This document shows positions 7,567-29,030 of a stretch of DNA of 64,000 nt, in pieces. Under the pieces are notes generated by a model, which saw nothing but the letters and a program-made list of their open reading frames with translations, ran no database searches and was not told the origin of the DNA. The stretch covers positions 62,001-126,000 of the forward strand of contig JBBHKE010001577.1 of the NCBI GenBank assembly GCA_037447655.1, read 5' to 3'. Within the stretch, counting starts at the first letter, position 1. Every line of letters starts with the position of its first letter. The stretch is from Zygnema cylindricum (taxonomy: Eukaryota > Streptophyta > Zygnematophyceae > Zygnematales > Zygnemataceae). The position numbers and the translations under genes are program-made.

Positions 7567-8098
7567 CAAATAACGTTTATCAATCCTGTCTACCATGCTT
7601 CCGAGCCAAATAACAATAAATAAACTATAGATCTAACCCCTTCAGCAGTGGCGTTACAGACTCTTCAAAACCATCGTAATGCTCTCTCCCTTCAAGCTTT
7701 CACTCTTGAAGAGCGTTCCAGCCTCACTCCTCACATAAGTTTCCTAGATAACAAATTGGGCGTATTCACAGCTAATGGGGTTACCCCTGTATTACCTCTG
7801 ATGGACACAAGAGCGAAACCAATTATACTTGGGTAAGATTTTGCCATCAAAATAGATCTTACTGCAGATACGCTACAACCCACCACCACACGCCTGTTGA
7901 CTTCTCCAGGTACCACAGAGCCGGTCCTCGGTTTTAGGATATGTCGAATCTGTTTTCAGTTTCAGTGTCAGTTAGCTACCGATTTCACAAAAATATACGC
8001 TCACGCCGTAGTCACCAAAAGAAGTGATTATGAATGCTAGGTCGACCAAGACTTTATTTTTCGAGTGGGGGTGGGGGGGGTGATATGCATGATCAAAC
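7567..8098 (+). pseudogene. gypsy-1 retropepsin (aspartic protease) region
   Basis: One frame from about 7648 gives a retropepsin-like stretch: a Leu-rich strand into D-T-R-A (7804-7815), where active enzymes have D-T-G-A, then a flap-like segment (SPGTTEPVLGF) and an AVVTK...DY..VDQDF stretch typical of the protease C-terminus. Stops occur at 7834-7836 and 8038-8040. In the living element it would cut the polyprotein. The Gly-to-Arg change and the stops make this copy dead. The methyltransferase follows in the same direction. The gag part lies to the left of the window or was lost to the LTR-B element. Confidence 0.6.
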
Positions 8099-8458
8099 AT
8101 TTTCGTAAAAACCGAACAACTTTTTGGAACGCAAAAATTGCTTACCCCTCATCTGGGCCCGACAACCCATTCCCACTACGGCTCATTCTTCGTTTATCTT
8201 GCGAGCCTATGCTGCAAATGGCATAGGCGCGGATATTCTTGAATCTCTAACATCGGATGAAATCTCACTAGACCCTCCGAGAATACCAGAATTATTTAGC
8301 ACACCCGGATTTATCATTGACTTTTCAAAATTTGACCGACTTTATAAATTGAAATGCGAATCCTTTTATTCAGTATTTTGGATCCACCCCGCATTACGTT
8401 GGATCCTTCCGGGTTCTTCCCCATTAAATAGAAGCTAGTCAGTTTACAACCTCACCCG
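8099..8458 (+). pseudogene. gypsy-1 polyprotein linker between protease and DNMT
   Basis: A poly-G run at about 8067-8080 precedes an open stretch (8124-8438, 104 codons) with no motif I recognise. It sits exactly between the protease and the methyltransferase and ends at a TAG just before motif I. I take it as the linker or a regulatory part of the same polyprotein. Alternatively it is unrelated open frame. Confidence 0.35.
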
Positions 8459-8912
8459 AATGGTATTGTTATCTTAGAACTTTTTGCAAGATTATGAACT
8501 ACACTTTTCTCTTGCCTTCGAAACGCTCTTCTGATTAAGCATTATTATTTTGTAGATATCGAACCCTTCGCTAGACGCGCTCAGATGCACCACTGTCAAA
8601 TCTTGCAAGAACAATATCCTCACCTCTTACCCCAGTCCGCTTTTCACGACATGCATTCGGCTTTACCACAGGATCTCCGCCTAATAGGAAATCACCATTT
8701 GTTTGAAGTAGAACCAATCGATCTCCTCTTCGCCGGATGGTAATGTCAAGGTATGTCTAGGGCCGGGAAGGGTTTAAGTCTTGCAGATCCGCGTACTAAA
8801 CTTTTCTTGGAAGTAGTGCGTCTTATCCACTTCTTCCAAACACTGAACTGTCTTTTCGGATACGTCTTAGAAAACGTTGCAGCTTATAATGACCCTCGAC
8901 CCATAGTTCTCG
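8459..8912 (+). pseudogene. gypsy-1 cytosine-5 DNA methyltransferase, N-terminal half
   Basis: One frame of 151 codons with two stops. It reads in order: motif I (ILELFARL, 8474-8494; AdoMet-binding FAGxG-like, followed by TGA at 8495); motif II-like YYFVDIEP; motif IV around 8735-8760, reading AGW-stop-CQGMSRAGKG, where the catalytic Cys codon TGT (8744-8746) survives but the preceding Pro codon has become TAA; an FLEVVRLIH helix; and motif VI LENV (8867-8878). Family members methylate C5 of cytosine in DNA through a Cys thiolate and an ENV glutamate. The frame continues without loss across Copia-2 at 18057. It looks closest to the DNMTs carried by retroelements of charophytes and is less like the host MET1/CMT enzymes (judged from memory). 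Confidence 0.8.
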
Positions 8913-9962
8913 TGAAACTCTGAGACCTCCATAAGTCCTCAGAGTGGACAGCTTCCAAAAAGCCTCTAGGATGATCCTGACCCCTTTGTGTTTCAGCAAA
9001 AAAAACTGCCACCCTGGCAGACAAAAACTGTGACCACCTGCACCCTTGTGAAGGCAAGACTTCCCTGAGTCGATAGCAAAAAGAATCTCTAAATTTGCTC
9101 CCCTGAGCTGTAAGTTATGGAGGGTCAAAGTTGACCTTTTGTACAGAAGCTCTTTGGGAGAGAGGGTCATATCTTCTAATTTTTCTAAGTCTTATCTCTC
9201 TCACAGACTCTATCTACTGACGTACGAAACCAATCAGATTACAGTTCCGTACGCAAAAAGTACAGCTGCCGGTGTAGTTTATGTACGGACACTGTACGAC
9301 ATGGCCTAAATGTCCACATGTGGTTATTTCTGGATTCGCTCCTTTAATCCTCGGAGATGCCGCGCTCCAATGTAGCATCGCCACGTGTCATCGGATGTGG
9401 CGATGCCGACAAACCGCCGAATTCTTCTTCCGCGATCTCGGCGCTAATTTCGACCGTCCGATTAAACTCGCATTTGATCGTAGCAGTAATAAATACATGT
9501 GCGGTATTTGTTTCGCTTACGGAATCAATGCGCGGTATTGATTTCTTATCCGTACCGCAATTCGTACTTTTACAATACCAGATCTATGTATCGCGTTAAC
9601 AATTATTGTTAAATGATTTTCCCTACGAATTAATGTTTAATTAATTATCGTACTATATAATACGTAAGATTACTTCTAGACTTAACGGCTAAGGCTACCA
9701 CCTATCTACTCTCTGTGGGCCGGCAGGTACCACAATCAAATCCTGTGGCCGGCATATACCTTTTAGTAAATAATCCCCTAACTAATATAAATTTTCCCGT
9801 AAACCTCAGGATAGCCTAGGTAGCCATGGCTCTAGCTTCCTCTCCGATTTCTTAGTGACTGCGACAAGTTTGAGAGTTGGAGAGAGAAGTTAGAGGTAGA
9901 CTGCCTCGGCTTCTTTATTTCTATTCAGACCTAGAAAATACTTAAAACCATTAATTTCTACA
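8913..9962 (-). repeat. Copia-2 3' LTR (family A)
   Basis: TGAAACTCTG...TTTCTACA on the plus strand, with the same tRNA-like, G-box and GTAC features as the other A copies. The purine tract follows at 9963 (element-strand AAGGGGAG). Confidence 0.9.
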
Positions 9963-9989
9963 CTCCCCTTATTTTCTAGTCAATCTTTA

Positions 9990-10724
9990 ATTTCAGACCA
10001 CACTTCTCCCTGCAGAAAATTAGCTTAGGGGAAGGCACAGGTTTGGTCATCATATCTGCTACCATCTCACTATCTGGTCGGTACTCTAAACTGATTATTT
10101 TATTTTCTACTTTCTCTCTAACAAAGCTGAGTCTAATGTCCATGTGTTTAGCTTAAAAATGATGTTTAGGATTGGCAGAAATAGCAATTGCTGCCTGATT
10201 ATCACAAAATATTTTATGCACACCACCCTTACGGTGACCAAGCTCACCAAGCAAAGACTTGACCCACATCAATTCTTTTACAGCGGAGCAAGAGGCCATA
10301 TACTCAGCCTCCATGGTGGACTGTGCAATAACTTTTTGCTGTTTGCTACTCCAACAGCAAGCCCTATCACCCACATATAATACATATCCAGAAGTGCATC
10401 TCCTCATCGGAGCATCACCATAACTGGCATCACTCCAAGTAGTGATGTCAGTATTTTCCCCACCCAAATAAAACCATAGATCCCTAGTTCCTATCAAATA
10501 TCTAAGGACTCTCTTAGCTGCCTCCCAATCCTTCTTAGTGGGAGCATTTAGACTTCTTCTCTGTACTCCTACAGCTGCAGCTAAATCCAGTCGGGTACAA
10601 TTCATAAAATAGATTAGACTTCCCACTACTTGCCTGTAAGGAATAGTCTGCATGAACTTGTGTTCTTGAGGAGATAATTTCTCGTCTAAGACTATGACTC
10701 CTTCTTCCTCACTCCCCTCACTTC
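9990..10724 (-). pseudogene. Copia-2 RNase H / RT C-terminus, fragment
   Basis: Encodes the RNase H part (WSDASYGDAPMRRC, STMEAEYMASCSAVKELMW) and the NCTRLDLAAAVG linker of Copia RT, with an open 166-codon stretch at 10153-10653. Continuity with the rest of RT is broken by the solo LTR-C at 10730 and resumes at 12032. Confidence 0.85.
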
Positions 10725-10729
10725 CCCTC

Positions 10730-12026
10730 TGTTGATATTTGAGTATTTTCTAGGTCTTTATAAGGATAGAAAAAGAGTAGAAGCAGTCTACCTCTGACTC
10801 CCTTCTCCAAGCCCCCACACTTGTTGTAGTCACTGAAGGCTGGAAAGGGAGCTAGAGCCATGGCTGCCTAAGCTCTCTGGAGAGACAGGTATAGATAAAT
10901 GTAGATTTACTAAAAAGAATGTTGACGGACCCAGGAATTGATCCTGGTCCCTTCTAGCCGTCAAGTCACCCGTAGCCGGTAGCTCTAACCGTTAAGTCTA
11001 GGAATAGTGTTACATTATATGGGGTTTGTTAACTATATAAACTGTTATACGTAGATTAATTCGATTAACGGAAAATAGATACTCAAGTGCATAGATATAG
11101 TTTTATTTAGTACGGATTACGATACAGGGACGGAACGAATACCGCGCCAATGTTCGACGGCTAAAATTGAATGCCGGTTTAAATCGGACGGCCGCAATAA
11201 ACACCGAGATCGCGAAATAGGTTTTTTTGGCGTTTGCGGACGTCACCACTCCGAATGACACGTGGCGACATCCTACGGGTTGCAGAATCTCCGGAACAGA
11301 ACATAATATATCCGGATGTGACAAATGTCACATTAAAGCATCATCGTACATCATCCGTACATAAAGTACTCCGGCACCTGTACTTTCTGTACGGTACCGT
11401 TTTTTCTGACCTGGCGCCACGTGGAGGGATAAGATTTGGAAGCATGAATTCCGGGGATTGTAGGAACAAATCTGGATATGGCACTTGTCGACATTTTGGC
11501 CATGTCGTACGATGGTACACCAGCACCTGTACCTTTATGTACTTTACAGTCTTGTTATTGGTTCGTACCTTAGTAATAGGGGGCTTAGAGAGGGGTTTTA
11601 GGACTTAGAATATTTCTGGTAGGTAGCTGCCTCTCCCAGAGAGCACCTTGTATAAATGGCAAACTTTGACCAGCCATAACTATCAATTCAGTTGACCAAA
11701 TTCAGTGATTCTTTTTGCTGCGGACTCAAGGGAGTCCAAGCTACACAGGGGTGTAGTCGGTCAGAGTTTTTTCCTGCCTGGGTGGCTGCATTTCTAAGGG
11801 AAAGTCAAAGTGGGTGAATGTGTCCAAATCACATATTCTAACTTTGCATTCTGTGGTGGAACTGAGCACACAGAAAGTCTTATTTCACAGGGGTGAAGCT
11901 ACCATGGGGTTCTAATTGTCAAGGGGTCAATCATTTGGGTTTATATAAACTTGGAGTCGCCACTATCTAGATTAGCTTCCTTTGGACCTGCGAATTCTGT
12001 GTGGCAATGGAGCCCATAGAATTTCA
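10730..12026 (+). repeat. Solo LTR family C (#1)
   Basis: TGTTGATATT...TAGAATTTCA, 1297 bp, flanked by the perfect duplication CCCTC (10725-10729, 12027-12031). Removing it joins the Copia-2 RT sequence exactly as in Copia-1. Its first 150 bases resemble LTR-A (TATTTTCTAGG, AGCCATGGCT), so A, B and C are related families. Confidence 0.9.
10922..10997 (-). other. tRNA-like segment inside LTR-C
   Basis: On the minus strand it reads ACGGTTAGAGCTACCGG and then CCAGGATCAATTCCTGG, a perfect 5-bp stem with a 7-base loop like a T arm. The 3' stretch GTCCGTC has no partner 5' of the D-arm part, so it is not a full tRNA. It is antisense to its LTR. Confidence 0.5.
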
Positions 12027-12031
12027 CCCTC

Positions 12032-12725
12032 TTCAACTCCATTGGAGTTCTACAAGTATTAGCTTTATCCATTTGAAATTTTTCAAGCATGTTCCCTATT
12101 GCTTCCTTTTGAGTTAGTCTTATAATTTTTCTTTTTCGGTCTCTCTCTACTTGAATTCCCAAAATATATTTTGCTTCCTCATATCCTTCATTTCAAATCT
12201 CCCCTTAAGATCGGTCTTCAGTTTATTAATTTTTTCCATTGATTTATTTAAAACAAGCAAATCATCAACATAAATTGCAATTAATATAAAACCTTCCTCA
12301 TCTTCGAAAACATAGATTGAGTGATCTGAGCTGATTTGAATATAGCCCTGACCGGTAAGAAACTCATCTAGCTTCTTATTCCATTGTCGAGGCGCCTGTT
12401 TCAAACCATAAAGAGATTTAATCAGCCGGCATACCTTACTCTCCTCTCCTTCCTCCACAAACCCTTCAGGTTGTCGCATGAAGATCTCCTCTTCCAATTC
12501 TCCATGCAAAAAGGGTGTTTTGATGTCCATCTGGTGCACTTCGATGTCTTTCGCTGCTGCCAAGCTGAGAAGTATGCGGACGGAGGAAAATCTGACCACC
12601 GGGGCAAAGGTTCTCTCGTAGTCAATTCCCTCCTTTTGTATAAATCCCTTTGCCACTAGTCGGGCCTTGTAGCGCTCGATTGTGTTATCTGGGTTTAGTT
12701 TTAATTTGAATACCCACTTACAACC
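12032..12725 (-). pseudogene. Copia-2 reverse transcriptase core, fragment
   Basis: Carries FAPVVRF, the catalytic IYVDDLLVL and LYGLKQAPRQWNKKL motifs of Copia RT. A frameshift near 12160-12180 separates it from the LGIQVERDRK part. It is bounded by the CCCTC and GATT target duplications of the two nested LTRs. Confidence 0.85.
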
Positions 12726-12729
12726 GATT

Positions 12730-14131
12730 TGTCAAGCTCGTGTGCATCTTCGGCACATTTGCACTCCCAGGAGTTCCGGGGCCTCATTCCACTTTGTACG
12801 GACTCTAGCGTACAAAGAAGGAAGAGGACAACTAGCCGGATCAGATCTATATATTTTCACTCTGGAGCCCTACGCAATTTAGTTCACCTTAAACGGAGGC
12901 CGAACAGCGGAGTTAGTCCGGTGCAAAGTGTCTGCTCCATTATATTGTGTGTTCTATGTAGCTCAAGTAGAGGGATACATTAGAGAACGACACGTAACCT
13001 TAGGGATTATCCCGTAGATCCTACTGTTAGCTGTCAGTAGGATGTTAGTTTAGGCCCAACAGCCGGGCCTAGCATTAATGACTGTGGGTCAAAGTTAGGC
13101 GGTTTCACGTCAAGTCAGAACTTTGGTCCCATTTTTGTGTATTAGAGGAGGACCCTCAGCCTCTAATCCAGCCGGGACCAGTCGTCTAACTTTTAGCCCT
13201 GAGTATGGTACAGTATGTTTTGTCTTATGTTAGTACGATAACAATTGCTGGCCGCTGATTGGCTCGTCACATTGCTTTGACTTTGGAACTTGCAGTAGGA
13301 CAAACTTTGGTTGTATAAGGCACTTGGGGCCAAAGGAGACAGGTTGTTTTTTTCAGTACTGTCTCCTGAGAAAACCCCCAGATAAAGAAATCAATCTTTC
13401 TGTTGGAGAACGTTTGCATTTTGTCTTTGACTCTATTGCCATCTTTGTTTTGGGATTGTCTTTTGTGGAGACCGTAGCACGGGTGGGTAGTTGGCACTAT
13501 CCCCCCTTTGGGCGGTTTGGACTTTCGCTGTTTGAAACTAAGAAGAGTCTTGTCGGATCCTTGCGGTGGAACCGAGAGGGGTGAGGGAGACTCATACCTC
13601 TCTTCGGGGCTATTGGGAGAGGTTTTCTTCTGCTGAGTTTGGTCATCGTTACACTCCGGGGTATGTGAATTCGCTTCACCATTATCATTTATTTCTATCT
13701 TTAATTCCGTTCTCTGGGGCAAGGTGATATTGTTTAATCTGAAAAGCCGATATTTGTTATTTCTATATTTCTGCGTGAGAGTTATTTGCACACTCTTGTG
13801 GTCATCTTTAGGTATGTCCGGAGTTTTTGCGGAACGGATCGGACGACTCCCATTTCCCTCTTATTCTTTGGAGAGTAGTTAGGAGTGTGGCATTTAGTGG
13901 GCTTCCAGCGGAGTAGCACAGTAGGAAATTCTGGGGGGGTACAGGGTACTTTTCTTTTCCACTCCATTCCTTCTTACTATCTATGCATATCCGTGGGGGG
14001 GGGTAATGGACAGAGATGGGCATTGTCACGGATCCGGGAAAGCATTGGCATTTGGGGTGGATTGCACGTTTCTCATGCACACCTCCTTGGACATCTTACC
14101 TGAACCTCCCGGTTCCCAGGCACGCTCGACA
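12730..14131 (-). repeat. Solo LTR family D
   Basis: Runs TGTCAAGCTCG...CACGCTCGACA, 1402 bp, with short inverted ends. It is flanked by a 4-bp GATT duplication (12726-12729, 14132-14135), unlike the 5-bp sites of the Copia LTRs. Removing it restores the Copia-2 sequence (ACCGATTGGTTTTCG). Related sequence lies at 59935-61025 and from 63000. The parent element is unknown. G- and C-runs occur at 13930-14010. Confidence 0.8.
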
Positions 14132-14135
14132 GATT

Positions 14136-16985
14136 GGTTTTCGTTTAGGTGGACAATCCACCAGCTCCCAAGTATCGGCTGCTATAATTGAGGCCAACTC
14201 CTCATTGATGGCTCTCTTCCCCCGATTTCTTTCTGGACAAGTCATCGCCTCTCTATAAGTTTGAGGTTCATCTTGTTGAGATAGTTTAGTTACCTTGTTA
14301 TTAACCTGTTATTCATGCAGTCTTTTGCTACTTCTCCTTCCCCCCTCAAAATCTGAGGCCAGAATAGATGGTTCTTGTGGATTCTTTCGAACAAACTCGG
14401 CTTCTCCCCTATCCCTTGATTCCGAATCAATTTTCACCACGTCTTCCGCTTCGCGTAGAGTTGTCACTGGAGTTTCCACAGTCGAGTCCTTTTCGGTCTG
14501 ATTTGTACCTGCAAGAATGTCACCGTCTCTAAAACCTGGATAGTTAGGAAGCTCAAAGTCATCAGAATTTTCAGACTCAAATCTGATTTTTACTGACTTC
14601 GTATATTTGAAAGGATCCACAGACTTTCCTTCATCCATAACTACTAGATGTTTTATTAAGATTATATCATCCCTTTTTAGATCATAAATTCTATATCCTT
14701 TAACATCTTCATCATATCCTAAAAGGTATCTCGGTTTTCATTTAGGATCTAGCTTCCAATTAGACCGATCTATATCTAGACTGAATACTTTACTGCCGAA
14801 AAACTTTAAGTGAGATATGTTTGGTTTCCGGCCTGTCCATCTCTCATAAGGTGTTTGATCTTTTATAGCTGAAGTAAGAACTCTATTTTCGAGGTAATAA
14901 GCAAAGTTCATTGCTTCAGCCCAAAACCTTTTTCCTATCTTTTTATCTGACAACATACTTCTAGCACTATCACATAGTGTTCTATTTAACCTTTCAACTA
15001 CCCCATTTTGTTCCGGATTTTCTGGAACTATCTTTTGGTGTTGGACTCCATCTTCCCTCAGAAAATCCTCAAACTGGTTAGAAGTATACTCTCCACCATT
15101 GTCACTCCTTACTCTCTTGATTGGAGTTTCATGGAGTTTTTCGCTCCATGCTTTATATTGTCTAAAACAATCCTGAGCTTCTAACTTGTTTTTTAAAAAA
15201 TACACCCGGAATACCGAGACCAATCATCAGTTATAGTCATCATAAATCTCTTCCCCTCGGTGAGGGCACTTTAGCCGGTCCCCAAATATCAGTGTGTACT
15301 AGATCTAGAATTTTTTTCCCTTATAGGTGGTTGTTTTAGGAAAAGGTAATCTGTGTGCTTTACCTTGAGCACATCCACTACAAACACTTATATAATCATT
15401 CTCACTGAACTGAATCCCTTCCACCACTCCAATCTTTTTCATCTATCTTAACTTATCTAGATTCACATGCCCAACCCTCTTATGCCACATCATAATAACA
15501 TGAACACCAGCATAATAAAGTTTCTTCGTTTCATTACTTAAAATCAGCCTAAACATCCCATGGCTACCTTTCTCAGCAATGAAATAGACATCCTCCTCAA
15601 AACAAGCAGTAAAGACTCCTTCCCTAGTGCTAATGAAAAAACCCTTATCATCTAATACAGATGTAGAGATAAGGTTTTTGTTCAGTTCCATTATAAACAA
15701 TACATCGAAGAATGTTAATATGGATGTCTTTCCTTCTACTAACACTTTCAGATCTACCGATCCTACAAGAGTAGTGGTGACTATCCATCATCCTTGTACT
15801 CTATCTCTACGGTGGGAATCTTTCTTATCTTAGTGAACAGGTGCCTATCCTTACACATGTGCAGGGAGGCACATGAATCTACAATCCAACTTGCTTCACC
15901 TTTCAATCCACCGTAAGCACATTTCTGCCTTCGTGGAATTTCGACCTCATTTTTCGCCTCCAACTCCTCATTCAAAAGGAGCTCATCGTCCTCGTCCTCG
16001 GATTCCGCCTCAAGTACCTCTGTGACAAGGGCGTTTTTCTTTCCTTTCGGGGTACCACTGGTCTACCCCTCCTTTAACCGAAGCTCGGTTAGCTTAGTGC
16101 ACTCTGCCATATAGTGCCCCGGTTTCTTACAAAAATGACATAAACCTTTGGGAGCCCTTGGTTCGAACTCGTCGGCCTGCTTTTTCTGCTCCCTACCCCC
16201 AATGTTTTTGACCGGTTTTCGGGAATCCTTCTTCTTCCAATCATTCGCTGTTGCCAAAGCTTGGCCACTCTTTCCTCCCCTTCGGATCTCAATGGTATTC
16301 TCTCGAACGAGAATCATCCCTACCAACCTTGAGTCCGGCAAGCCCTGCACACGGTTGACTATGTTCTCGAACTCATCGGGTAACTTCATCAGTAAACAGT
16401 TAACCTTTTTTTTTTCACTAACATCTTTTCACGCACTTTCTAGCTCCATGAAGAGTGTAGCAAGCTCATTGCAAAAATCCAACATATTTCCCCCTTTGTA
16501 TACATACTCCTTAACATTTTGATCAACCAACTGTTGTTGCTATATCGTACCACTTCAGTACATCTCTATGAGAGCCATCCAAAGATCCGATGCCCTTTCT
16601 CCCTGCAAATGAGGACATGCAAGTCCTTGAGTGAGATTGCGTAGGATGAAGTGCTTTGCCGCCATATTGTTGACGTCCCAGGTTTTAGTATCATTCTCCT
16701 CGTTCCTCAGAATAGGTGACATGAATGCCGAACCACTTGCTATTGGTGTGGTCGTCTCATTCTCCCTTCCTTTGTCCACCACCTCTCCTTCTTTTGTTTC
16801 CTCCGTTGAAGGTGGATCCTCTTTTCTGGTGAATCTGCTTCCTCCAAATCGTGGAGGAATTCCAAGACTTGATGGACGCCCCAACCGTCCACTCACTATC
16901 CCCCAAAACCTTTTTTCGCATAGAGCTCCTATCATCATACTTTCCTAGTATATGAAGCCTGTTCCATTAAAGATTGGTACCCTAA
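14136..16985 (-). pseudogene. Copia-2 gag, protease, integrase and RT N-terminus, broken
   Basis: From the element 5' end: gag (about 16985-16060) with ASDLWMALIEMY and a CCHC knuckle (FCKKPGHYMAEC near 16110-16140); retropepsin near 15880, reading DSCAS where DSGAS is expected; GAG-pre-integrase (15745-15440); integrase (15223-14740) with RSDNGGEYTSNQF and PENPEQNGVVERLNRT; and the variable region up to the RT start at 14136. Several frameshifts and stops. The same protein family as Copia-1, -3 and -4. Confidence 0.88.
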
Positions 16986-17002
16986 AGGGTGGGCCCATAA
17001 CC

Positions 17003-18051
17003 TGAAACTCTGAGACCTCTATAAGTCCTCAGAGTGGACAGCTTCCAAGAAGCCTCTAGGATAACCCTGACCCCATTGTGTTTCAGCAAAAATAACTGTC
17101 ACCCTGACAATAAATAACCCTGACCAACTTCACCCCTGTGTAGGGAAGACTCCCTTGAGTTGATAGCAAAAAGAATCTCTGAATTTGCTCCCCTGAGCAG
17201 TAAGTTATGGAGGGTCAAAGTTGACCTTTTGTACAGAAACTCTCAGGGACAGAGGGTCCTATCTTCTAATTTTTCTAAGTCCTATCTCTCTCACAGACTC
17301 TATCTACTGATGTACTGAACCAATCAGATTACAGTTTTGTACTCAAAAACTACAGTCGCCGGTGTACTTTATGTACGGACACTGTACGACATAGCCTAAA
17401 TGTCCACACGTGGTATGTTTGGATTCGCTCCTTTAATCCTCGGAGATGTCGCGCTCCAATGTAGCATCGCCACGTGTCATCCGATGTGGCCATGCCCACA
17501 AACCGCCGAATTCTTCTTCCAAGATCTTGGCGCTAATTTTGGCCGTCTGATTAAACTCGCATTTGATCGTAGCAGTGATAAATACATACGCGGTATTTGT
17601 TTCGCTTACGAAATCAGTGCGCGGTATTGATTTCTTATCCGTACCGCAATTTGTGCTTTTACAATACCAGATCTATGGATCGCGTTAACAATTATAATTA
17701 AAGGATTTTTCCTACGAATTAATGTTTAATTAATTATCGTACTATATAATACGTAAGATTACTTCTAGACTTAACGGCTAAGGCTACCGGCTATGTACTG
17801 TCTGTCGACCGGCAGGTACCAGAATCAAATCCTGTGGCCGGCATATACCTTTTAGTAAATAATCCCCTAACAAATATAAATTTCCCGTAAACCTCACGAT
17901 AGCCTAGGTAGCCATGGCTCTAACTTCCTCTCCAATTTCTTAGTGACTGCGACAAGTTTGAGAGTTGGAGAGAGAAATTAGAGGTAGACTGCCTCGGCTT
18001 CTTTATTTCTGTTCAGGCCTAGAAAATACTTTAAAACCATTTATTTCTACA
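17003..18051 (-). repeat. Copia-2 5' LTR (family A)
   Basis: Pairs with 8913-9962 and ends TTTCTACA just before the TCTCG duplication. The primer site (GGTGGGCCCATAACC on the plus strand) abuts it. Confidence 0.9.
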
Positions 18052-18056
18052 TCTCG

Positions 18057-18543
18057 CAGATTACAAACGTATTGAATCATTAATTGGACCACCACTGATC
18101 ATCGATGCCGCACGCCACGGTTCCATGGCCCACTGGGTTTGTTCCAAGTGGACTAACCTGGGGGACATGGGCCGGCTCCGAGAAGCTAACCTCGCTGTCC
18201 ACCACCTAACCTTTCCATTTAGGATGCACTTCTTCCATTTTATAAGGTACATACATGTATCCAGATAGAATATTCTCTTGATTTTTGTCTTAACATCCTT
18301 GGCCAGCAACTACGTGCACTTTCTACACTAGTCACATATCCACACTCTCACGCATAATCACATAATGGACCGGGCATGCTTGAAAATACTAATACGGGCA
18401 GCTTAGAAGAACCTGTTGCCGCAAAACGAGAACACCTTGTACATTTCATCCCAGGCACCACTGCTGCCCCGGGACACACCGAGCGGCACCGCTGCACCTT
18501 ACTTGGTCGTGTCATGGATCCCCAATCACTGTCATTTGTCTTC
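18057..18543 (+). pseudogene. gypsy-1 cytosine-5 DNA methyltransferase, C-terminal half
   Basis: Continues the frame of 8459-8912 after Copia-2. It starts with ADYKRIESLIG, then a motif VIII-like segment IIDAARHGSMAHW (about 18095-18135) and the SKWTNL strand. A frameshift near 18225 moves the frame to DALLPFYKVH, which runs through the target-recognition region to NTGSLEEPVAAKREHL, then TAAPGHTERHR and LLGRVMD, matching the motif IX-X end of DNMTs. A TAA lies at 18355-18357. The domain ends close to 18543, where the LTR-C insertion begins. All the main DNMT motifs are therefore present across the two halves, in the right order and strand. Confidence 0.78.
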
Positions 18544-18832
18544 TGTTGATATTTGTGTATTTTCTAGGTTTGTTTTAGGATAAAACAAGGCAAAGGCAGT
18601 CTGCCTCTTACACCCTTCTCCATGCCCCCACACTTGTTGTAGTCACTAAAGGCTGGATAGGGAGTTAGAGTCATGGCTGCCTAGGTCTTCTATAGAGACA
18701 TGTGTAGAAACTGGTAGATTTACAAAAAAAGGGTTTGACGGACCCAGGATTTGATCTTGGTACCTACGGTCCATCAAACACCCCGTAGCCGTTAGCTTTG
18801 TCCGTTAAGTGTATGACTAATGCTGAGGTATA
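18544..18832 (+). repeat. LTR family C (#2), left part, split by Copia-3
   Basis: TGTTGATATTTG... matches LTR-C#1 and resumes at 25281 after Copia-3. The flanking duplication is TCTTC (18539-18543) and TCTTG (26106-26110), one base apart. Confidence 0.8.
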
Positions 18833-19883
18833 TGTAGAAATTAATGGTTCATTTTTTAGTTTTTTCTAGGTCTAAATAGAAAGAAGCCGAGGCAGTCTAC
18901 CTCTAACTTCTCTCTCCAAACTCTCAAACTTGTCGCACTCACTGAGAAATTGGAGAGGGAGCTAGAGCCATGGCTACCTAGACTATCCAGAGGTTTACGG
19001 GAAATTTATATTTGTTAGGGGTTTATTTATATAAAAGGATCATGCCGGCCCACAAAATTTGATCCTTGCACCTACCGGCCGGCAGGCAGCTAACAGCCGG
19101 TAGCCTTAGCCGTTAAGTCTAGGATTAATGTTACGTAGTATATAGTTTGATGTATATTTAAATATGTATACGTACGATAAATCATTTAACTGTAACAGAT
19201 TACAGGATACATAGATCTAGTAATATATAATGTACAAATTACGGTACAGACGAAAAATCAATACCGCGCATTTGTTTCGTAAGTGAAACAAATACCGCGT
19301 ATGTATTTATTACGGCTACGATTAAATCCGAATTTAATCGGACGGCCGGGATTAGCGCCGAGATCGCGGAAGAAGATTTTGGCGGTTTGTGGCCATCGCC
19401 ACATCGGATGACACGTGGCGAAATTACATTGGATCGTGGAATCTCCGAAGATTATGGCATTGAATTCGGATATGACATGTGTCGACATTTAGACCATGTC
19501 GTACAATGTCCGTACATAAAGTACACCGGCAGCTGTACTTTTGCGTACGGAACTGTATTCTGATTGGTTCCGTACATCAGTAGATAGAGTCTGTGAGAGA
19601 GATAGGACTTAGAAAAAATAGGAGATAGGACCCTCTCTCCCAGAGAGCTTCTGTACAAAAGGTCAACTTTGACCCTCCATAACTTACTGCTCAGAGGAGC
19701 AAATTCAGAGATTCTTTTTGTATCGACTCAAGGGAGTCTTGCCTTCACAGGGTTGGAGTTGGTTAGAGTTATTTACTGTCAAGGTGGCAGTTATTTTTGC
19801 TGAAACACAATAGGGTCAGGGTTATCCTAGAGGCTTCTTGGAAGCTGTCCACTCTGAGGACTTATGGAGGTCTCAGAGTTTCA
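18833..19883 (+). repeat. Copia-3 5' LTR (family A)
   Basis: TGTAGAAATTAATGG...GAGGTCTCAGAGTTTCA. The gag ATG lies inside its last 20 bases (19864). Confidence 0.9.
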
Positions 19884-21353
19884 AGTTATGGGCCCACCCT
19901 TTAGGGTACCAATTTTTAATGGAACTAGCTTCATATACTGGGAAAGTATGATGATAGGAGCTCTATGCAAATAAAAGTTTTGGGGGATAGTGAGTGGACG
20001 GCTGAGGCGTCCATCAAGTCTTGGAATTCCTCCAGGGTTTGGTGGAAACAGATTCACCAGGAAAGAAGATCCACCTTCAACGGAGGAAACAAAAGAAGGA
20101 GAGGTGGTGGACAAAGGAAAGGAGAAGGAGGCGTCCACACCAATAGCAACTGATTCGGCATTCATGTCACCTATTTCGAGGAACAAGGAGAATGATACTG
20201 AAACGTGGGACTTTAACAATATGGCGGCAAAGCACTTCATTCTACGCCATCTCACTCAAGGACTTGCATGTCCCCATTTGCAGGTAGAAAGGGCATCCGA
20301 TCTTTGGATGGCTCTCATAAAGATGTACCAAAGTGGTACGATTCAGCAACAACAGTTGGCTGATCAGAAAGTTAAAGAGTACGTATACAAAGGGGGGAAG
20401 ATGTTGGATTTTTGTAATGAGCTTGCTACACTCTTCATGGAGCGCGGGAAAAGTCTTTAGTGAAAAGGAAAAGGTTAACTATTTACTAATGAAGTTGCCT
20501 GATGAGTTCCAAAACATAATCAACCGTGTGCAGGACTTGCCGGACTCAAGGTGGATATGGAACTCAGTGGTAGGGATGATTCTCGTTCGGGAGAATACGA
20601 TTGAGATCCGAAAGGGAGAAAGAGTGGATGAACAAGGATTCTCGAAAACCGGTCAGAAACTATGGGGGGAGGGAGCAGAAAAATCAGACCGACGACTTTG
20701 GACCAAGGGCTCCCAAAGGTTTATGTCCTTTTTGTAAGAAACCTGGGCACTATATGGCGGAGTGCACTAAGATAACCGAGCTTCGGTTAAAGGAGGGGCA
20801 GACCGGTGGTACCCCGAGAGGAAAGAAAAAGGCCCTTGTGACACAGGTACATGAGGCGGAATCCGAGGATGAGGACGATGAGCTTCTTTCTGATGAGGAG
20901 TTGGAGGCGAAAAATGAGGTCGAAATTCCACGAAGGCAGAAATGTGCTTACGGTGGATTGAAAGGTGATGCAGGCTGGATTGTAGATTCAAGTGCCTCCA
21001 TGCACATGTGTAAGGATAGGTACTTGTTCACTAAGATAAGAAATATTCCCACCGTAGAGATAGAGTACGGGGATGGGAGGATAGTCACCACTACTCTTGA
21101 AGGATCGGTAGATTTGAAAGTGTTAGTAGAAGGAAAGACATCCATAGTAACATTCTCCGATGTATTGTTTATTTCGGAGCTGAACAAAAACCTCATCTCT
21201 ACATCCGTATTAGATGATAAGGGTTTTTTTACTAGCACTAGGGAAGGAGTCTTTACTGCTAGGTTTGAGGAGGATGTCTATTTCATTGCTGAGAAAGGTA
21301 GCCATGGGATGTTTAGGCTGGTTTTAAGTAATGAAAAGAAGAAACTTTATTAT
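19864..21353 (+). pseudogene. Copia-3 gag and protease, broken
   Basis: Starts MEVSEFQVMGPP in the LTR and primer site, like Copia-1 and -4. A TAA follows ALCK near 19970. Gag resumes through ASDLWMAL, frameshifts near 20450, and continues to a CCHC knuckle (FCKKPGHYMAEC near 20725-20765). Retropepsin near 20985 reads VDSSASMHMC, so the Gly of DSGA is Ser. The open stretch 20601-21353 ends where a foreign LTR segment replaces the next about 130 bp. Confidence 0.88.
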
Positions 21354-21511
21354 GCTCAGGGGAGTCTTGTCTTCACAGAGGTGAAGTTGGTCAGAGTTTT
21401 TGTCTGCCAGGGTGGCAGTTATTTTTGCTTAAACACAAAGGGGTCAGGATTATCCTAGAGGCTTCTTGGAAGCTGTCCACTCTGAGGACTTATGGAGGTC
21501 TCAGAGTTTCA
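21354..21511 (+). repeat. LTR-A 3' terminal segment embedded in Copia-3 coding sequence
   Basis: Begins GCTCAGGGGAGTCTTG and ends ...GAGGTCTCAGAGTTTCA, identical in type to the last about 158 bp of LTR-A. It replaces the GAG-pre-integrase codons that Copia-4 has between TTATTATGCT and AGTGGATGTGCTC. No target duplication is seen. Short homology (GCTCAGGGGA) at the left joint fits template switching. Confidence 0.85.
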
Positions 21512-22653
21512 ATTGAAGTGGATGTGCTCAAGGTAAAGCACACAGATAACCCTTTCCTAAAACAATCACCTATAAGGGAGAAAAAATTCTAGATCTAGTA
21601 CACACAGATATTTTGGGACCGGCTAGAGTGCCCTCACCGGGGGGGAAGAGATTTATGATGACTATAACTAATGATTGGTCTTAGTATTCCTGGGTGTATT
21701 TTTTGAAAAACAAGTCAAAAGCTCAGGATTGTTTTAAACAATATAAAGCATGGAACGAAAAACTCCATGAAACTCTAATCAAGAGAGTAAAGAGTGACAA
21801 TGGTGGAGAGTATACTTCTAACCAGTTTGAGGATTTTTAGAGGGAAGATGGGGTCCAACACCAAAAGACAGTTCCAAAAAAATTGGAATAGAATGGGGTA
21901 GCTGAAAGGTTAAATAGAACACTAAGTGATAGTGCTAGAAGTATGTTGTCAGATAAAAAGATAGGAAAAAGCTTTTGGGCAGAAGCAATGAACTGTGCTA
22001 ATTACCTCAAAAATAGAGTTCTTACTTCAGCTATAAAAGATCAAACACCTTATGAGAGATGGACAGGTCGGAAACGAAACATATCTCACTTAAAGGTTTT
22101 CGGCAGTCAAGTATTCAGTCTAGATACTGATTGGTCCAATTGGAAGCTGGATCCTAAAGGAAAATCGGGATAGTTATAAAGATATGATGAGGATGTTAAA
22201 GGATATAGAGTTTATGATCTAAAAAGGGATGATATAATCTTAGTAAAGCATCTAGTAGTTACGGATGAAGGAAAGTCTGTGGATCCCTTCAAATATACGA
22301 AGTCAGAAAAAATCAGATTTGAGTCAAAAAATTCTGATGACTTTGAGCTTCCTATCTATCCACGTTTTAGAGAAGATGACATTCTTGCAGGTACAAATTA
22401 GACCGAAAAGGACTCGACTGTGGAAACTCCAGTGACAACTCTACCCGAAGCGGAAGACGTGGTGGAAATTGATACAAAATCAAGGGATAGGGGAGAAGCC
22501 GAGTTTGTTCGAAAGAATCCACGAGAACCATCTATTCTGGCCTCAGATTTTGAAGGGGGGAGGAGAATTAGCAAAAGACTATAAGAAAAACAAGTTAATA
22601 ACAAGGTAAGTAAACTATCTCCTCAAGATTAACCTCAAACTTATGGAGAGGCT
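21512..22653 (+). pseudogene. Copia-3 integrase, broken
   Basis: Contains the SDNGGEY motif with changes (KSDNGGEYTSNQFED then TAG near 21838), AERLNRTLSDSARSML and the 76-codon open stretch at 21943-22173. Several stops. The zinc-binding HHCC part is missing because of the 21354 replacement. Confidence 0.85.
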
Positions 22654-24216
22654 ATGACTTGTTTAGAAAGAAATCGGTGGAAGACAACCATCAATGAGGA
22701 GATGGCCTCAAACATGGCAGCCGATACTTGGGAGCTGGTGGTTTGTCCACCTAACCGAAAACCAATCGGTTGTAAGTGGGTTTTCAAATTAAAACTGAAC
22801 CCAGATAATACAATCGAGCGCTACAAGGCCAGATTAGTGGCAAAGGGATTTACACAAAATGAGGGAATTGACTACGAGGAAACCTTTGCCCCGGTGGTCA
22901 GATTTCCCTCCGTCCGCATACTTCTCAGTTTAGCAGCAGCGGAAGACATGGAAGTGCACCAGATGGACATCAAGACAACCTTTTTGCATGGAGAATTGGA
23001 AGAGGAGATCTTCATGCGACAACCCGAAGGTTTTGTGGAGGAAGGAGGAGAGAGTAAGGTATGCTGGCTGATTAAATCTCTTTATGGTTTGAAACAGGCG
23101 CCTCGACAGTTGAATAAAAAGCTTATTGAGTTTCTTACCGGTCTAGGATATATTCGGATCAGCTCAGATCACTCAATGTATGTTTTCGAAGATGAGGAAG
23201 GTTTTATATTTATTGCACTTTATGTTGATGATTTGCTTGTTTTAAGTAAATCAATGGAAAAAATTAATAAATTGAAAACCGATCTTAAGGGGAGATTTGA
23301 AATGAAGGATATGGGAGAAGCAAAATATACTTTGGGAATTCAAATAGAGAGAGACCGAAAAAGGAAAATTATAAGGCTGACTCAAAAGGAATCAATAGGG
23401 AACATGCTTGAAAAATTTCAAATGGATAAAGCTAATAGTTGTACAACTCCAATGGAGTTGAAGAAGGGAAGTGAGGGGAGTGAGGAAGAAGGAGTCATAG
23501 TCTTAGACGAGGAATTATCTCCTGAAGAACAGAAGTTCATGCAGACTATTCCTTACAGGCAAGTAGTGAGAAGTCTAATCTATTTTATGAATTGTACCCG
23601 GCCGGATTTAGCTGCAGCTGTAGGAGAACTGAGAAGAAGTCTAAATGCTCCCACTAAGAAGGATTGGGAGGCAGCTAAGAGAGTCTTTAGATATTTGATA
23701 GGAACTAGGGATCTTTGGTTGCATTTGGGTGGGGAGAATACTGACATCATTACTTGGAGTGATGCCAGTTATGGTGATGCTCCGATGAGGAGATGCACTT
23801 TTGGATATGTATTATATGTGGGTGATGGGGCTTGCTGTTGGAGTAGCAAACAGCAAAAGGTTATTGCTCAGTCCACCATGGAGGCTGAGTATATGGCCTC
23901 TTGCTCTGCTGTAAAAGAATTGATGTGGGTCAAGCCTTTGCTTGGTGAGCTTAGTCACCTTTAGAGTGGTGTGCAGCAAATATTTTGTGATAATCAGGCA
24001 GCAATTGCTAAATCTGCCAATCCTAAACATCATTTTAAAGCTAAACATATGGACATCAGACTCAGCTTTCTTAGAGAGAAAGTAGAAAACAAAATAATCA
24101 GTTTTGAGTACAGACCAGATAGTGAGATGGTAGCAGATATGATGACCAAACCTGTGCCTTCCCCTAAGCTAATTTTTTGCAGGGAGAAGTGCGGTCTTAA
24201 AATAAAGATTGACTAA
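22654..24216 (+). pseudogene. Copia-3 reverse transcriptase and RNase H, largely open
   Basis: An unbroken 436-codon frame (22654-23964) covers the whole [34 protein letters not shown], the catalytic LYVDDLLVL (about 23218-23245), YTLGIQIERDRK, and RNase H with WSDASYGD and STMEAEYMA. A TAG after GELSHL (23962-23964, AAG in relatives) cuts off the last 80 codons, which stay open to 24216 (FCDNQAAIAKSANPKHHF, DMMTKPVPSPKLIFC). It is the best preserved RT in the window. Without gag, integrase and protease it cannot act alone. Confidence 0.9.
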
Positions 24217-24229
24217 AAAATAAGGGGAG

Positions 24230-25280
24230 TGTAGAAATTCATGGTTCATTTTTTAGTATTTTCAAGGTCTAAATAGAAAGAAGCCGATGCAGTCTACCTC
24301 TAACTTCTCTCTCCAAACTCTCAAACTTGTCGCAGTCACTGAGAAATTGGAGAGGGAGCTAGAGCCATGGCTACCTAGGCTATCGAGAGGTTTACAGGAA
24401 ATTTATATTTGTTAGGGGTTTTTTTATATAAAAGGATCATGCCGGTCCACAAAATTTGATCCTTGCACCTACCGGCCGGCAGGCAGCTAACAGCCGGTAG
24501 CCTTAGCCGTTAAGTCTAGGATTAATGTTACGTAGTATATAGTTTGATAATTATTTAAATATGTATACGTACGATAAATCATTTAACTGTAATAGATTAC
24601 GGGATACATAGATCCAGTAATATATAATGTACGAATTACGGTACGGACGAAAAATCAATACCACGCATTTGTTTCGTAAGTGAAACAAATACCGCGCATG
24701 TATTTATTACGGCTACGATTAAATCCGAATTTAATCGGACGGCCAAGATTAGCGCTGAGATCGCGGAAAAAGATTTCGGCGGTTTGTGGCCATCGCCACA
24801 TCGGATGACACGTGGCGAAATTACATTGGATCGTGGAATCTCCGGAGATTATGGCACCGAATCCGGATATGACATGTGTCGACATGTAGGCCATGTCGTA
24901 CAATGTCCGTACATAAAGTACATCGGCAGCTGTACTTTTGCGTACGGAACTGTATTCTGATTGGTTCCGTATATCAGTAGATAGAGTCTGTGAGAGAGAT
25001 AGGACTTAGCAAAATTAGGAGATAGGACCCTCTCTCCCAGAGAGCTTTTGTAATAAAAGTCAACTTTGACCCTCCATAACTTACTCCTCAGGGGAGCAAA
25101 TTCAGAGATTCTTTTTGCTATAGACTCAAGGGAGTATTGCCTTCACAGGGGTAAAGGTGGTCAAAGTTTTTGTCTGCCAAGGAGGCAGTTGTTTTCGCTG
25201 AAACACAAAGGGGTCAGATTATCCTAGAGGCTTCTTGGAAGCTGTCCACTCTGAGGACTTATGGAGGTCTCAGAGTTTCA
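24230..25280 (+). repeat. Copia-3 3' LTR (family A)
   Basis: TGTAGAAATTCATGG...GAGTTTCA, preceded by the polypurine tract at 24215-24229. Confidence 0.9.
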
Positions 25281-26105
25281 GTATGAATGGTTTGATAGAT
25301 ATTTAAACATTTACAAATAGGATATTTTGTTTAACTAATAATTAGTACGGTAGAACATAGTACTAGTTGTGTACTAAAGTACCGCATGAAACAAATGTTG
25401 CGAACATTTATATCAACGGCTAATATTCAATTCGGACTTCATCGAACCGCCGTGATAGGAGCCGATATCGCGGAAAGGGCATTTTGGCGTTTTCTGGAAG
25501 CCGCCACTCCGAATAACACGTGGCAGCATTGTACGGGTTTACAAAATCTTCGACGAGCAAGACGACAAACCCTGATGTGACAGATGTCGCTGTTTTGGCC
25601 ATGTAGTACAGTTACCGTACATAAAGTACACCGATACTTGTAATTTTTGTACTATACAGTCCTATGATTGAACCTTAATTCAGTAGAAGGGGTTGTAGAG
25701 AGGAAATAAGACTTAGAATTTTTTTGTAGGTAAAAGGCTAACTTTGAGCAGTCATAACTATTCACTCAATTGACCATTTTTGGTGATTGTTTTTGCTGCG
25801 CACTTAAGGGAGTCCACGTTACACAGAGGAGTAGTTGGTTAGAGCTTTTTCTTGCCAGGGTGGCTACATATCCCATGGAAAGTCAAAGAGGGTGAATGTT
25901 TCTAAAAGTCATATTCTAACTTTGCATTCTGTGGTAGAACTGAGCACACAGAAAGTCTTATTTCACAAGGGTGAAGCTATAATGGGGTTTTGATTGTCAA
26001 GGGGTCAATCATTTGGGTATATATATATACTTGGAGTCAGCACTACCTAGATTAGCTTCTTTGGATTTGCGAATTTTGTGGGACAATGGAGCCCATAGAG
26101 TTTCA
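25281..26105 (+). repeat. LTR family C (#2), right part
   Basis: Continues 18544-18832 after Copia-3. It shares the LTR-C#1 3' half (GAGCACACAGAAAGTCTTATTT) and ends CATAGAGTTTCA at 26105. Confidence 0.8.
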
Positions 26106-26110
26106 TCTTG

Positions 26111-26381
26111 GGGAGGGGGTTCGCAACCGGTCGATACCCACATAACAATCCGTCTAAATTAGCTAGGGGGGGGGGGGCATATACCATTCAAATACACAAC
26201 ATCTATTTCCACACCTTCTCTTCGGGGTACAACTTTATAACTCTCCCTTTTTCATTCCTCTACCAAGTCAGACACACAGATCACACTATTTATGATTTTT
26301 TAGAACCTAGTCACATGAGTTGGTCTCTCCTCCTAGCATACACAACTGCTAAATCTCACGAAACGGTAAGGGCGTCAACAC
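26111..26381 (+). pseudogene. gypsy-1 residue between DNMT and RT
   Basis: Sequence between the LTR-C#2 duplication and the LTR-A stub. It is open on the plus strand (26108-26386) in the frame of the DNMT end, with a G13-type run near 26165. No motif recognised. From its place it is the spacer after DNMT motif X. Confidence 0.35.
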
Positions 26382-27437
26382 TATAGAAATTAATGGTCTT
26401 TTAAAGTATTTTCTAGGTCTGAATAGAAATAAGAAAGAAGCCGAGGCAGTCTACCTCTAACTTTTCTCTCCAACTTCTCAAACTTGTCGCAGTCATTGAG
26501 AAATTGGAGAGGGAGCTAGAGCCATGGCTACCTAGGCTATCCAGAGGTTTACAGGAAAATATATTTTAGTTAGGGGTTTTATTTACTAAAAGATATATGC
26601 CGGCCACAGGATTTGATCCTGGTACTTACCGGCCGGCAAACTGCCGGTAGCCGTTAGCCTTAGCCGTTAAGTCTAGAAGTAATGTTACGTATTATAGGGT
26701 TTGATAATTATTTAAACATTTATACGTAGAATAGTTCATTTAACTGTAACTGATTACGGGAGACATATTTCCAGTAATGTACAAGTACGGATTCCGGTAC
26801 GGATAAGAAACAAATACCGCGCATTTGTTTCTTTAGTGAAACGAATACCGCGCATGTATTTATTACGGCTACGATTAAATGTGAATTTAATCAGACTGTC
26901 GGAATTAACGTCGAGATCGCGGAAGAGGATTTTAACGGTTTGTGGTCATCGCCACATCGAATGACACGTGGCGAAATGACATTGGATCGCGGCATCTTTG
27001 AGGATTAAGGGAGCGAATCCGGACATACCACGTGTCGACATTTAGGCCATGTCGTACAGTATTCGTACATAAAGTACACCGACAGCTATACTTTTACATA
27101 CACAGGAGTAATCTGATTGGTTCCGTACATCAGTAAATAAAGTCTGTGAGAGAGATAGGGTTTAGAAAAATTAGAAGATAGGACCCTCTCTCACAGAGAG
27201 CTTCTGTAAAAAAGGTCAACTTTGATCCTCCATAACTTACTGCTCAGGGGAGCAAATTCAGAGATTCATTTTGCTATCGACTCAGGGGAGTCTTGCCTTC
27301 ATAGGGGTGAAGTTGGTCAAAGTTATTTTTTGTCAAGGTGGCAGTTATTTTTGCCGAAACACAAAGGGGTCAAGGTTATCCTAGAGGCTTCTTGGAAGCT
27401 GTCCACTTTGAGGACTTATGGAGGTCTTTGAGTTTTA
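26382..27437 (+). repeat. LTR-A stub with primer site, internal region lost
   Basis: TATAGAAATT...GAGTTTTA is a full-length A LTR with one change at each end. It is followed by GGTTATGGGCCCA (27438-27450), so it was a 5' LTR. The next base belongs to other sequence: the Copia internal region and 3' LTR are missing. No target duplication is found. Confidence 0.8.
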
Positions 27438-27450
27438 GGTTATGGGCCCA

Positions 27451-28450: not shown

Positions 28451-28452
28451 TA

Positions 28453-29030
28453 ATGTTAGCCAATTATTATCGGAGGTTTATTCATAGTTTAAACACACTT
28501 GCATCTCCACTAAATGAACTCTTGAAGAAATCAATCGCGTTTACGTGGGGACCCTCTCTGATCGAGGCATTTCAAGGATTAAAGAACGCACTGTCCACCG
28601 CTCCCATTCTTCGTCCACCATATCACGAGTTACCATTTTGCCTACAAACAGGCTTTGGTAAGCTCGGTATTGCGGCCACCCTAACTCAGCGTGAAGTCAC
28701 AGGTGAGGAATATGTGGTGGCTTATGCCAGTCGGAGCAACAATCAAACGGAATCTAATTAGAGTAGTTATGAGGGGGAGTGCCTTGCCGCAGCTTGGGGA
28801 ATTGTGCATTTCCGCCATTATCTTTATGGCAAGCCTTTCACCCTTCTTACTGACCATCAACCATTGCATTGGCTCATGACCAATGAGAAGCTGTCCCACA
28901 AATTAGCTCATTGGGCTCTTATCTTACAAAAATTTGATATGGAAATAACCCATCGACCCGTGCTTCTCAGTTTGAATGTTGAATGCTTTTCCAAAAACCC
29001 TTTACCCAACTCTACCGATAATGGGGTACG
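28453..29030 (+). pseudogene. gypsy-1 RT thumb and RNase H
   Basis: YYRRFIHSLNTLASPLNELLKK, then the RNase H region with EEYVVAYASRSNNQTESN, a TAG near 28759, then YEGECLAAAWGIVHFRHYLYG and LLTDHQPLHWLM. This is the usual gypsy order with the conserved Glu and the second Asp visible. A frameshift near 28445 separates it from RT. Confidence 0.85.

What the first reader, a model, noticed from the sequence alone, without database searches (positions are those of the whole stretch)
8459..18543. A retrotransposon-borne cytosine-5 DNA methyltransferase, split by a Copia insertion
Seen: in one frame, motif I (ILELFARL), motif IV with the catalytic Cys codon at 8744, motif VI (LENV), and after exact removal of Copia-2 with its TCTCG duplication, motif VIII-like and IX-X-like segments up to 18543. 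A retropepsin lies upstream and a Ty3/gypsy RT downstream on the same strand. Known: C5-DNMT domains inside retrotransposon polyproteins have been reported for charophyte algae and dinoflagellates. Inference: this element could once methylate DNA, perhaps its own copies, which is unusual because methylation normally silences elements.
Basis: partly seen in the sequence, partly recalled or inferred. Interest (0 to 1): 0.9.

Follow-up and report, generated by a model that had tools for sequence, protein, structure and literature searches.

The report
Retrotransposon DNA methylase with altered motif
The window holds a dead copy of a family of jumping genes, from an alga or plant relative, that carry their own DNA-methylase-like enzyme; in this family the residue next to the enzyme's catalytic cysteine, normally proline, is glutamate, which raises the question of what chemistry or target the enzyme now has.

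Summary
Confirmed and extended. The window carries a decayed Ty3/gypsy-type element encoding a DNMT3-like cytosine-5 methyltransferase (PF00145, E 2.7e-8), broken at TCTCG by a Copia element and by further Copia insertions. The genome (353 Mb, species unidentified, probably green lineage) holds at least 123 PF00145 places. A long-ORF relative of the window copy reads gag region, protease, methyltransferase, reverse transcriptase, RNase H, integrase, PHD finger, and has identical terminal repeats, so it inserted recently. The kind is known (KnitGypsy-Dnmt3 of Klebsormidium, with the same odd split repeats).

New here: motif IV is Glu-Cys-Gln, not Pro-Cys-Gln, in 29 of 29 other places read of this family; a second gypsy family in the same genome has Pro (11 of 11). 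In my sample of relatives, Glu and Pro are about equally common and interleave; one Glu clade is rejected (AU test). The catalytic Cys, motif VI Glu and motif VIII Arg stay intact. A pattern accepting either residue gave 34 of 34 confirmed viral- or bacterial-collection loci with Pro. Glu-type loci are less CpG-depleted (0.80-0.94) than Pro-type (0.59-0.63). Activity is untested, and the Klebsormidium gypsy enzyme showed none in yeast (published as inconclusive).

The parts
7603..8348 (+). retropepsin region and spacer of the gypsy polyprotein (two overlapping frame pieces)
   Evidence: tblastn 71-80% identity to residues 653-900 of the L009 polyprotein; L009 residues 708-760 match Asp_protease_2 only weakly, E 0.012, below cut-off
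8360..8912 (+). methyltransferase piece 1: motif I, motif IV with Cys codon 8744-8746, motif VI LENV
   Evidence: PF00145 E 2.7e-8 on 8411-8907; 78% identity to L009; codon check
8908..8912 (.). target-site duplication TCTCG, left copy
8913..18051 (.). Copia-2 element inserted in the methyltransferase; LTRs about 8913-9948 and 17003-18051, LTR distance K 0.082
18052..18056 (.). target-site duplication TCTCG, right copy
18053..18543 (+). methyltransferase piece 2: motif VIII region (DAARHGS.AH) and motif IX-X-like segments, with a frame break near 18208-18247
   Evidence: tblastn 73-78% identity to L009 residues 1088-1251
18544..26098 (.). further inserted DNA, including a reverse-strand Copia with LTRs 18853-19883 and 24250-25280
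26099..26381 (+). methyltransferase piece 3 (end of the domain) and linker
   Evidence: tblastn 46% identity to L009 residues 1248-1337 and blastn 79% over 276 bases
26400..27435 (-). reverse Copia LTR inserted in the linker; no target duplication recognised
   Evidence: 86% identity to the Copia-2 LTR
27446..30624 (+). linker, reverse transcriptase, RNase H, integrase and PHD finger of the same element
   Evidence: tblastn to L009 residues 1342-2395, 73-74% identity over the two long segments; L009 domain limits
30645..30886 (+). terminal repeat B1
30889..31817 (+). terminal repeat A2 (78% to repeat A of L009)
31821..32062 (+). terminal repeat B2, right end of the element; B1/B2 distance K 0.089

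Best explanation
This is a dead copy of a recently active family (A) of Ty3/gypsy-type retroelements whose polyprotein is gag region, protease, DNMT3-like C5-methyltransferase, reverse transcriptase, RNase H, integrase and PHD finger, bounded by split direct repeats (A-ORF-B-A-B). Shown: the anatomy, a lower bound on copy number, the youth of one copy, conservation of the catalytic Cys, Glu and Arg residues, some constraint on the domain, and replacement of the motif IV proline by glutamate. Inferred: the enzyme stays with the reverse transcriptase in the particle and acts on a cytosine in newly made element nucleic acid (cDNA, or the RNA:DNA hybrid) through the usual Cys nucleophile, with the Glu tuning its rate, context or substrate; the PHD finger, placed where chromoviruses carry a chromodomain (recalled), helps choose the chromatin for integration.
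Against: No activity was measured here. In PMC5890265 the gypsy-borne enzyme of K. nitens and the LINE-borne one gave no methylation in yeast (called inconclusive, since human DNMT3B also failed), so no gypsy-borne domain is yet shown active. The motif IV proline is missing, so ordinary rates cannot be assumed. CpG observed/expected is 0.80-0.94 in 13 family-A loci against 0.59-0.63 in 5 family-B loci, which does not suggest heavy CG self-methylation. dN/dS in the domain is above that of reverse transcriptase in L009-L021 (0.18 against 0.03) and in L014-L019 (0.39 against 0.29, few changes), and above the Ka/Ks under 0.2 reported for K. nitens. 17 of 30 copies, the window included, carry at least one stop in the domain.
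Confidence: 0.55

Rival explanations
1. The Glu-type domain is catalytically silent and serves as a structural or DNA-binding module in the polyprotein, as DNMT3L does for DNMT3A (recalled).
For: The motif IV proline is lost; CpG is less depleted than in the Pro-type family; the domain evolves faster than reverse transcriptase; even the Pro-type K. nitens domain gave no methylation in yeast, inconclusive.
Against: The other catalytic residues stay intact in Glu-type rows (Cys 57 of 57, motif VI Glu 57 of 57, motif VIII Args 54 of 55 readable), no worse than in Pro-type rows (56 of 58, 55 of 58, 54 and 51 of 58). A dead enzyme should lose these too.
Confidence: 0.25
2. Ordinary CG methyltransferase of the KnitGypsy-Dnmt3 kind; the Glu is a tolerated substitution with no meaning.
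For: Same architecture and split repeats as reported for K. nitens; Glu and Pro lineages interleave in the tree, with Pro rows inside a mostly Glu clade.
Against: If any residue were tolerated others should be commoner: among 119 tree rows 57 are Glu, 58 Pro and 4 another residue. Family A keeps Glu in 29 of 29 places read, through a synonymous codon change, though silent sites in some comparisons between its subgroups are too diverged to compute.
Confidence: 0.16
3. The domain is a host methyltransferase gene fragment that merely lies beside a retrotransposon.
For: In the window alone the pieces are broken and separated.
Against: Single open frames join methyltransferase and reverse transcriptase in L009, L011, L012, L013 and L018; nearest tree rows are retroelement polyproteins or fragments. 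A chromomethylase-like exon of the same genome (L007) has PPCQG and is unlike it.
Confidence: 0.02

Closest known systems
KnitGypsy-Dnmt3 of Klebsormidium nitens (de Mendoza et al. 2018, PMC5890265; abstract, sections 9, 10, 11 and passages read; supplementary figures not seen)
   Same: Dnmt3-class methyltransferase inside the Pol ORF of a Gypsy element, copies without introns, DIRS-like repeat structure with Gypsy domains (Fig. 4 legend), purifying selection
   Different: Of the two K. nitens proteins returned here one has Pro-Cys (P0133) and one lacks the stretch (P0139), and the paper calls the key residues conserved; family A has Glu-Cys. The paper's main text has no mention of PHD. P0133 sits in another clade.
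SymbioDIRS-Dnmt3 and SymbioLINE-Dnmt of Symbiodinium (same paper)
   Same: Methyltransferase carried by retroelements; the two DIRS domains tested methylate CG de novo in yeast
   Different: Other retroelement classes (DIRS, LINE)
DNMT3A/DNMT3B catalytic domain
   Different: About 26% identity over the structural alignment; retroelement context; Glu for Pro in motif IV
Fungal RID/Masc1 putative methyltransferases (PMC6709928, passages read)
   Same: A C5-methyltransferase family with a non-canonical catalytic motif
   Different: There the change is in motif VI (EQT or EET for ENV) and the motif IV triad is given as PCQ; here motif VI keeps Glu-Asn and motif IV is ECQ

Membership tests
C5 cytosine methyltransferase (PF00145) | profile match over curated cut-off | tested here: met
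   window piece 34.1 bits, cut-off 22; L009 44.4 bits
C5 cytosine methyltransferase (PF00145) | catalytic Cys (motif IV), Glu (motif VI), Arg-x-Arg (motif VIII) | tested here: met
   relatives; Cys codon in 30 of 30 family-A copies including the window
C5 cytosine methyltransferase (PF00145) | Pro before the catalytic Cys (PCQ triad, PMC6709928) | tested here: not met
   Glu in 29 of 29 other family-A places read, TAA in the window
C5 cytosine methyltransferase (PF00145) | methyl transfer to cytosine C5 | not testable with these tools
   needs an assay
Dnmt3 class | closest to DNMT3 among solved relatives, in sequence and fold | tested here: met
   L009 and L011 sequences; fold of the relative P0002
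Ty3/gypsy element | order PR, RT, RNase H, INT | tested here: met
   L009, L019 pair of frames; the protease match is weak, below cut-off
Ty3/gypsy element | plain long terminal repeats at both ends | tested here: not met
   A1-ORF-B1-A2-B2 split repeats in L009, B-A-B in the window; TG...CA ends and a 4-base duplication are present
KnitGypsy-Dnmt3 | Dnmt3 inside Gypsy Pol ORF, no introns | tested here: met
KnitGypsy-Dnmt3 | DIRS-like repeats | tested here: met
   against the Fig. 4 legend
KnitGypsy-Dnmt3 | canonical key residues | tested here: not met
   motif IV Glu against Pro in P0133
KnitGypsy-Dnmt3 | purifying selection, Ka/Ks under 0.2 | tested here: inconclusive
   median 0.39, range 0.18-0.52 over 25 usable pairs: constraint, but weaker, and partly decayed copies are included
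Dead DNMT3L-like module | loss of several catalytic residues | tested here: not met

The most novel reading that the evidence does not exclude
Retroelements of the green lineage have repeatedly evolved a second catalytic form of the C5-methyltransferase, with glutamate next to the nucleophilic cysteine, that acts on a different substrate or context from CG in double-stranded DNA, for instance the RNA:DNA hybrid or single-stranded cDNA made in the particle. This would explain why the residue moves almost only between two states, why the other catalytic residues are kept, and why Glu-type elements are not CpG-depleted while Pro-type elements of the same genome are.
Probability: 0.3. Interest if true: 0.88.

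Novelty: new variant of a known kind. Interest (0 to 1): 0.73.

Why it matters
DNA methylation normally silences transposons, so elements that carry a methyltransferase are a puzzle; the 2018 paper described two lineages, and a later opinion piece lists methylase-coding Gypsy and DIRS elements more widely, green algae included (PMC6338049, passages read). Here a large, recently active set shows two gypsy families with different catalytic motifs in one genome, relatives in records named Haematococcus lacustris, Closterium, Klebsormidium and in many unnamed ones, and an exchange of the proline next to the catalytic cysteine with glutamate that happened more than once. That gives natural paired enzymes with which to ask what the motif IV proline does and what the elements methylate, if anything.

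Tried and rejected
Host gene beside a retrotransposon: rejected by fused frames. Fungal RID/Masc1 as precedent for Glu-Cys: I recalled such a motif, but the passages of PMC6709928 give PCQ in motif IV and EQT or EET in motif VI, so it is not a precedent; PMC2432034 held none of the four terms sought. A paper naming ECQ: the ten paper searches were made; only asked for ECQ itself (with DNA methyltransferase, motif IV, catalytic, whole words) and it found 0 papers. The library is open-access papers only and no supplements were read, so absence in print is not shown. One origin of Glu: rejected (AU p 5.9e-42 on 60 rows that I picked by hand from 119); the 119 are those of 180 rows with at least 55% of columns and a readable motif IV. 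Change of motif VI along with motif IV: looked for, not found. Heavy CG self-methylation of family A: not supported; the loci are related, so the p-value printed is not a test of independent events. Organism: the genome search did not answer the rRNA and RuBisCO queries, so the species is not identified; the green lineage rests on one exon whose best solved matches are filed as DNA (cytosine-5)-methyltransferase 1 (that 4fsx is maize ZMET2, a chromomethylase, is recalled), and contamination is not excluded. Gag and left repeat of the window copy: not found. No census of Glu against Pro over the whole genome was made: 41 distinct places were read, of 123 scored. Two pairs of these 41 (L009/L010, L044/L045) are over 99% identical over long stretches and may be haplotypes or duplicated contigs, so places are not the same as insertions. 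Of 50 viral and 24 genome stretches that matched the either-residue pattern, only the 24 and 10 confirmed by tblastn were read. DNMT and RT distances correlate among 38 polyproteins (Spearman 0.51), which allows a long joint history but does not exclude exchanges.
Full report
1. The observation. The stretch 8411-8907, stops written X, matches PF00145 at E 2.7e-8 with 34.1 bits against a curated cut-off of 22. TCTCG stands at 8908-8912 and 18052-18056, on either side of a 9.1-kb Copia element at 8913-18051 whose LTRs are 92% identical, K 0.082. The frame goes on at 18053; that piece alone gave no Pfam match but is 73-78% identical to the methyltransferase of open relatives.

2. The element. Against the 2395-aa frame of locus L009 the window shows, on the + strand, protease region 7603-8348, methyltransferase 8360-8912, 18053-18543 and 26099-26381, then reverse transcriptase to PHD finger 27446-30624, and terminal repeats B1 30645-30886, A2 30889-31817, B2 31821-32062. 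It is dead: 4 stops among the aligned methyltransferase codons and several frame breaks. B1/B2 distance is K 0.089 over 240 sites and the Copia-2 LTR distance is 0.082 over 1034 sites; the order agrees with the nesting, but the difference is too small to prove it. Window against L009 has dN/dS 0.24 in the methyltransferase, so much of the separating history was under constraint.

3. The family. The assembly (352.8 Mb, 2689 contigs) has at least 123 PF00145 places, all over the cut-off, with 123 of 782 candidates scored. I read 41 distinct places plus the window: 29 belong with the window (family A), 11 to a second gypsy family (B), and one (L007) is a host-like exon with GGPPCQG, best matched by a solved plant-type enzyme filed as DNA (cytosine-5)-methyltransferase 1 (its identity as chromomethylase is recalled). 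Two pairs of the 41 are near-identical and may be haplotypes. L009 has in one frame: zinc knuckle and protease (both weak, below cut-off), DNA_methylase, RVT_1, RNase H, integrase zinc-binding and core, PHD finger. Family B has methyltransferase, RT, RNase H, integrase and a weak PHD match in one frame (L011, L012), with a weak protease match in the frame before it in L012. L009 shows A1-ORF-B1-A2-B2 repeats, A1 and A2 identical over 931 bases, ends TGTC...GACA and a TTGG duplication: a recent insertion with DIRS-like split repeats but an integrase, as the Fig. 4 legend of PMC5890265 says for K. nitens.

5. The altered motif. The residue before the catalytic Cys is Glu in 29 of 29 other family-A places read (GAG 18, GAA 11); the window has TAA. 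The Cys codon is kept in 30 of 30. Family B has Pro in 11 of 11 distinct places. Among 45 polyproteins found with L009 the residue is Glu in 38, Pro in 6, Asp in 1. Over all 166 returned proteins, 49 of them without the stretch, the pair is EC 56, PC 53, QC 3, PY 2, DC 1, SC 1, EF 1; the searches were seeded with chosen sequences of both types, and the third listed its best 120 of 161, so these are not population frequencies. In 119 tree rows Glu (57) and Pro (58) interleave, with 7 changes at least, of which the well-supported branches force 2. On 60 of them, motif columns left out, 7 changes again, 3 forced, and a single Glu clade is rejected, p-AU 5.9e-42, difference 152.6 log units; gain and loss cannot be told apart, and several long branches are in the set. 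Other catalytic residues in Glu rows: Cys 57/57, Gln 57/57, motif VI Glu 57/57, motif VIII Args 54/55 readable each. As a control, patterns accepting Glu or Pro gave 24 confirmed viral-collection and 10 confirmed bacterial-collection loci; all 34 have Pro. One of the 34, L077, encodes a close relative (47%) in two long frames and sits in a cyanobacterial MAG, probably algal contamination.

6. Selection and methylation traces. In 13 open family-A copies, 25 of 78 pairs were usable (dS 0.05-1.2): median dN/dS 0.39, range 0.18-0.52. In the pair L009-L021 the methyltransferase gives 0.18 and reverse transcriptase 0.03; in L014-L019, with few changes, 0.39 and 0.29. CpG observed/expected, per aligned stretch, is 0.80-0.94 in 13 family-A loci and 0.59-0.63 in 5 family-B loci; two Copia elements of the window are 0.67-0.68. 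The loci share history, so this is a lead, not a test.

7. Reading. The methyltransferase probably travels with the reverse transcriptase and modifies new element nucleic acid. De Mendoza et al. proposed cDNA methylation for their DIRS elements (section 11) and showed de novo CG methylation in yeast by two SymbioDIRS domains; the LINE and KnitGypsy domains gave none, which they call inconclusive because human DNMT3B failed too (section 10). So no gypsy-borne domain is yet shown active. For family A the Glu leaves open whether rate, context or substrate differs, or whether the enzyme works at all. A PHD finger after the integrase, nearest to PHF12, BAZ2B and WSTF fingers, stands where chromoviruses have a chromodomain (recalled), so targeting of integration is a fair inference, untested.

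8. Novelty. The kind is published. I found no paper that names Glu-Cys in motif IV, but only one search asked for it directly, in an open-access library, and the supplementary figures of PMC5890265 were not seen. I therefore rate it a new variant of a known kind.

Noticed in passing
window 38434-39267 (-): ORF of 277 aa with an inorganic pyrophosphatase domain (PF00719, E 2.3e-16), probably part of a host gene; an ORF of 772 aa without Pfam match lies beside it at 35357-37675 (-).
   Followed up: partly
window 331-6759 (+), 18853-25280 (-), 47467-53904 (-): Three more copies of the same Copia family besides Copia-2, LTRs 85.7-88.5% identical to its left LTR.
   Followed up: partly
window 10738-11786: Inside Copia-2 a stretch resembles the element's own LTR in antisense (66-70% identity); the other LTR copies in the window show parts of the same relation.
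   Followed up: no
window 54912-57104 (+) and 61430-62953 (-): Two further gypsy-like fragments similar to the RT-integrase part of family A (28% and 39-62% identity); no methyltransferase match there.
   Followed up: no
L009 (C1344:85514-96151) and window 30645-32062: Split direct repeats (A-ORF-B-A-B) typical of DIRS-like elements, together with an integrase core domain, TG...CA ends and a 4-base target duplication: how such an element replicates is unclear.
   Followed up: partly
L077 (CADCWO010000201.1) and P0049: Relatives of these methyltransferases filed under cyanobacterial and Obscuribacterales MAGs; probably algal contamination.
   Followed up: no
P0065 (Calypogeia fissa): A liverwort record on a 25-Mb contig holds a related Pro-type methyltransferase (329 aa; whether in an element was not checked); [quoted passage not shown]
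   Followed up: no
P0057, P0098: Two relatives with Pro in motif IV have Tyr for the catalytic Cys (PY), so inactivated copies exist.
   Followed up: no
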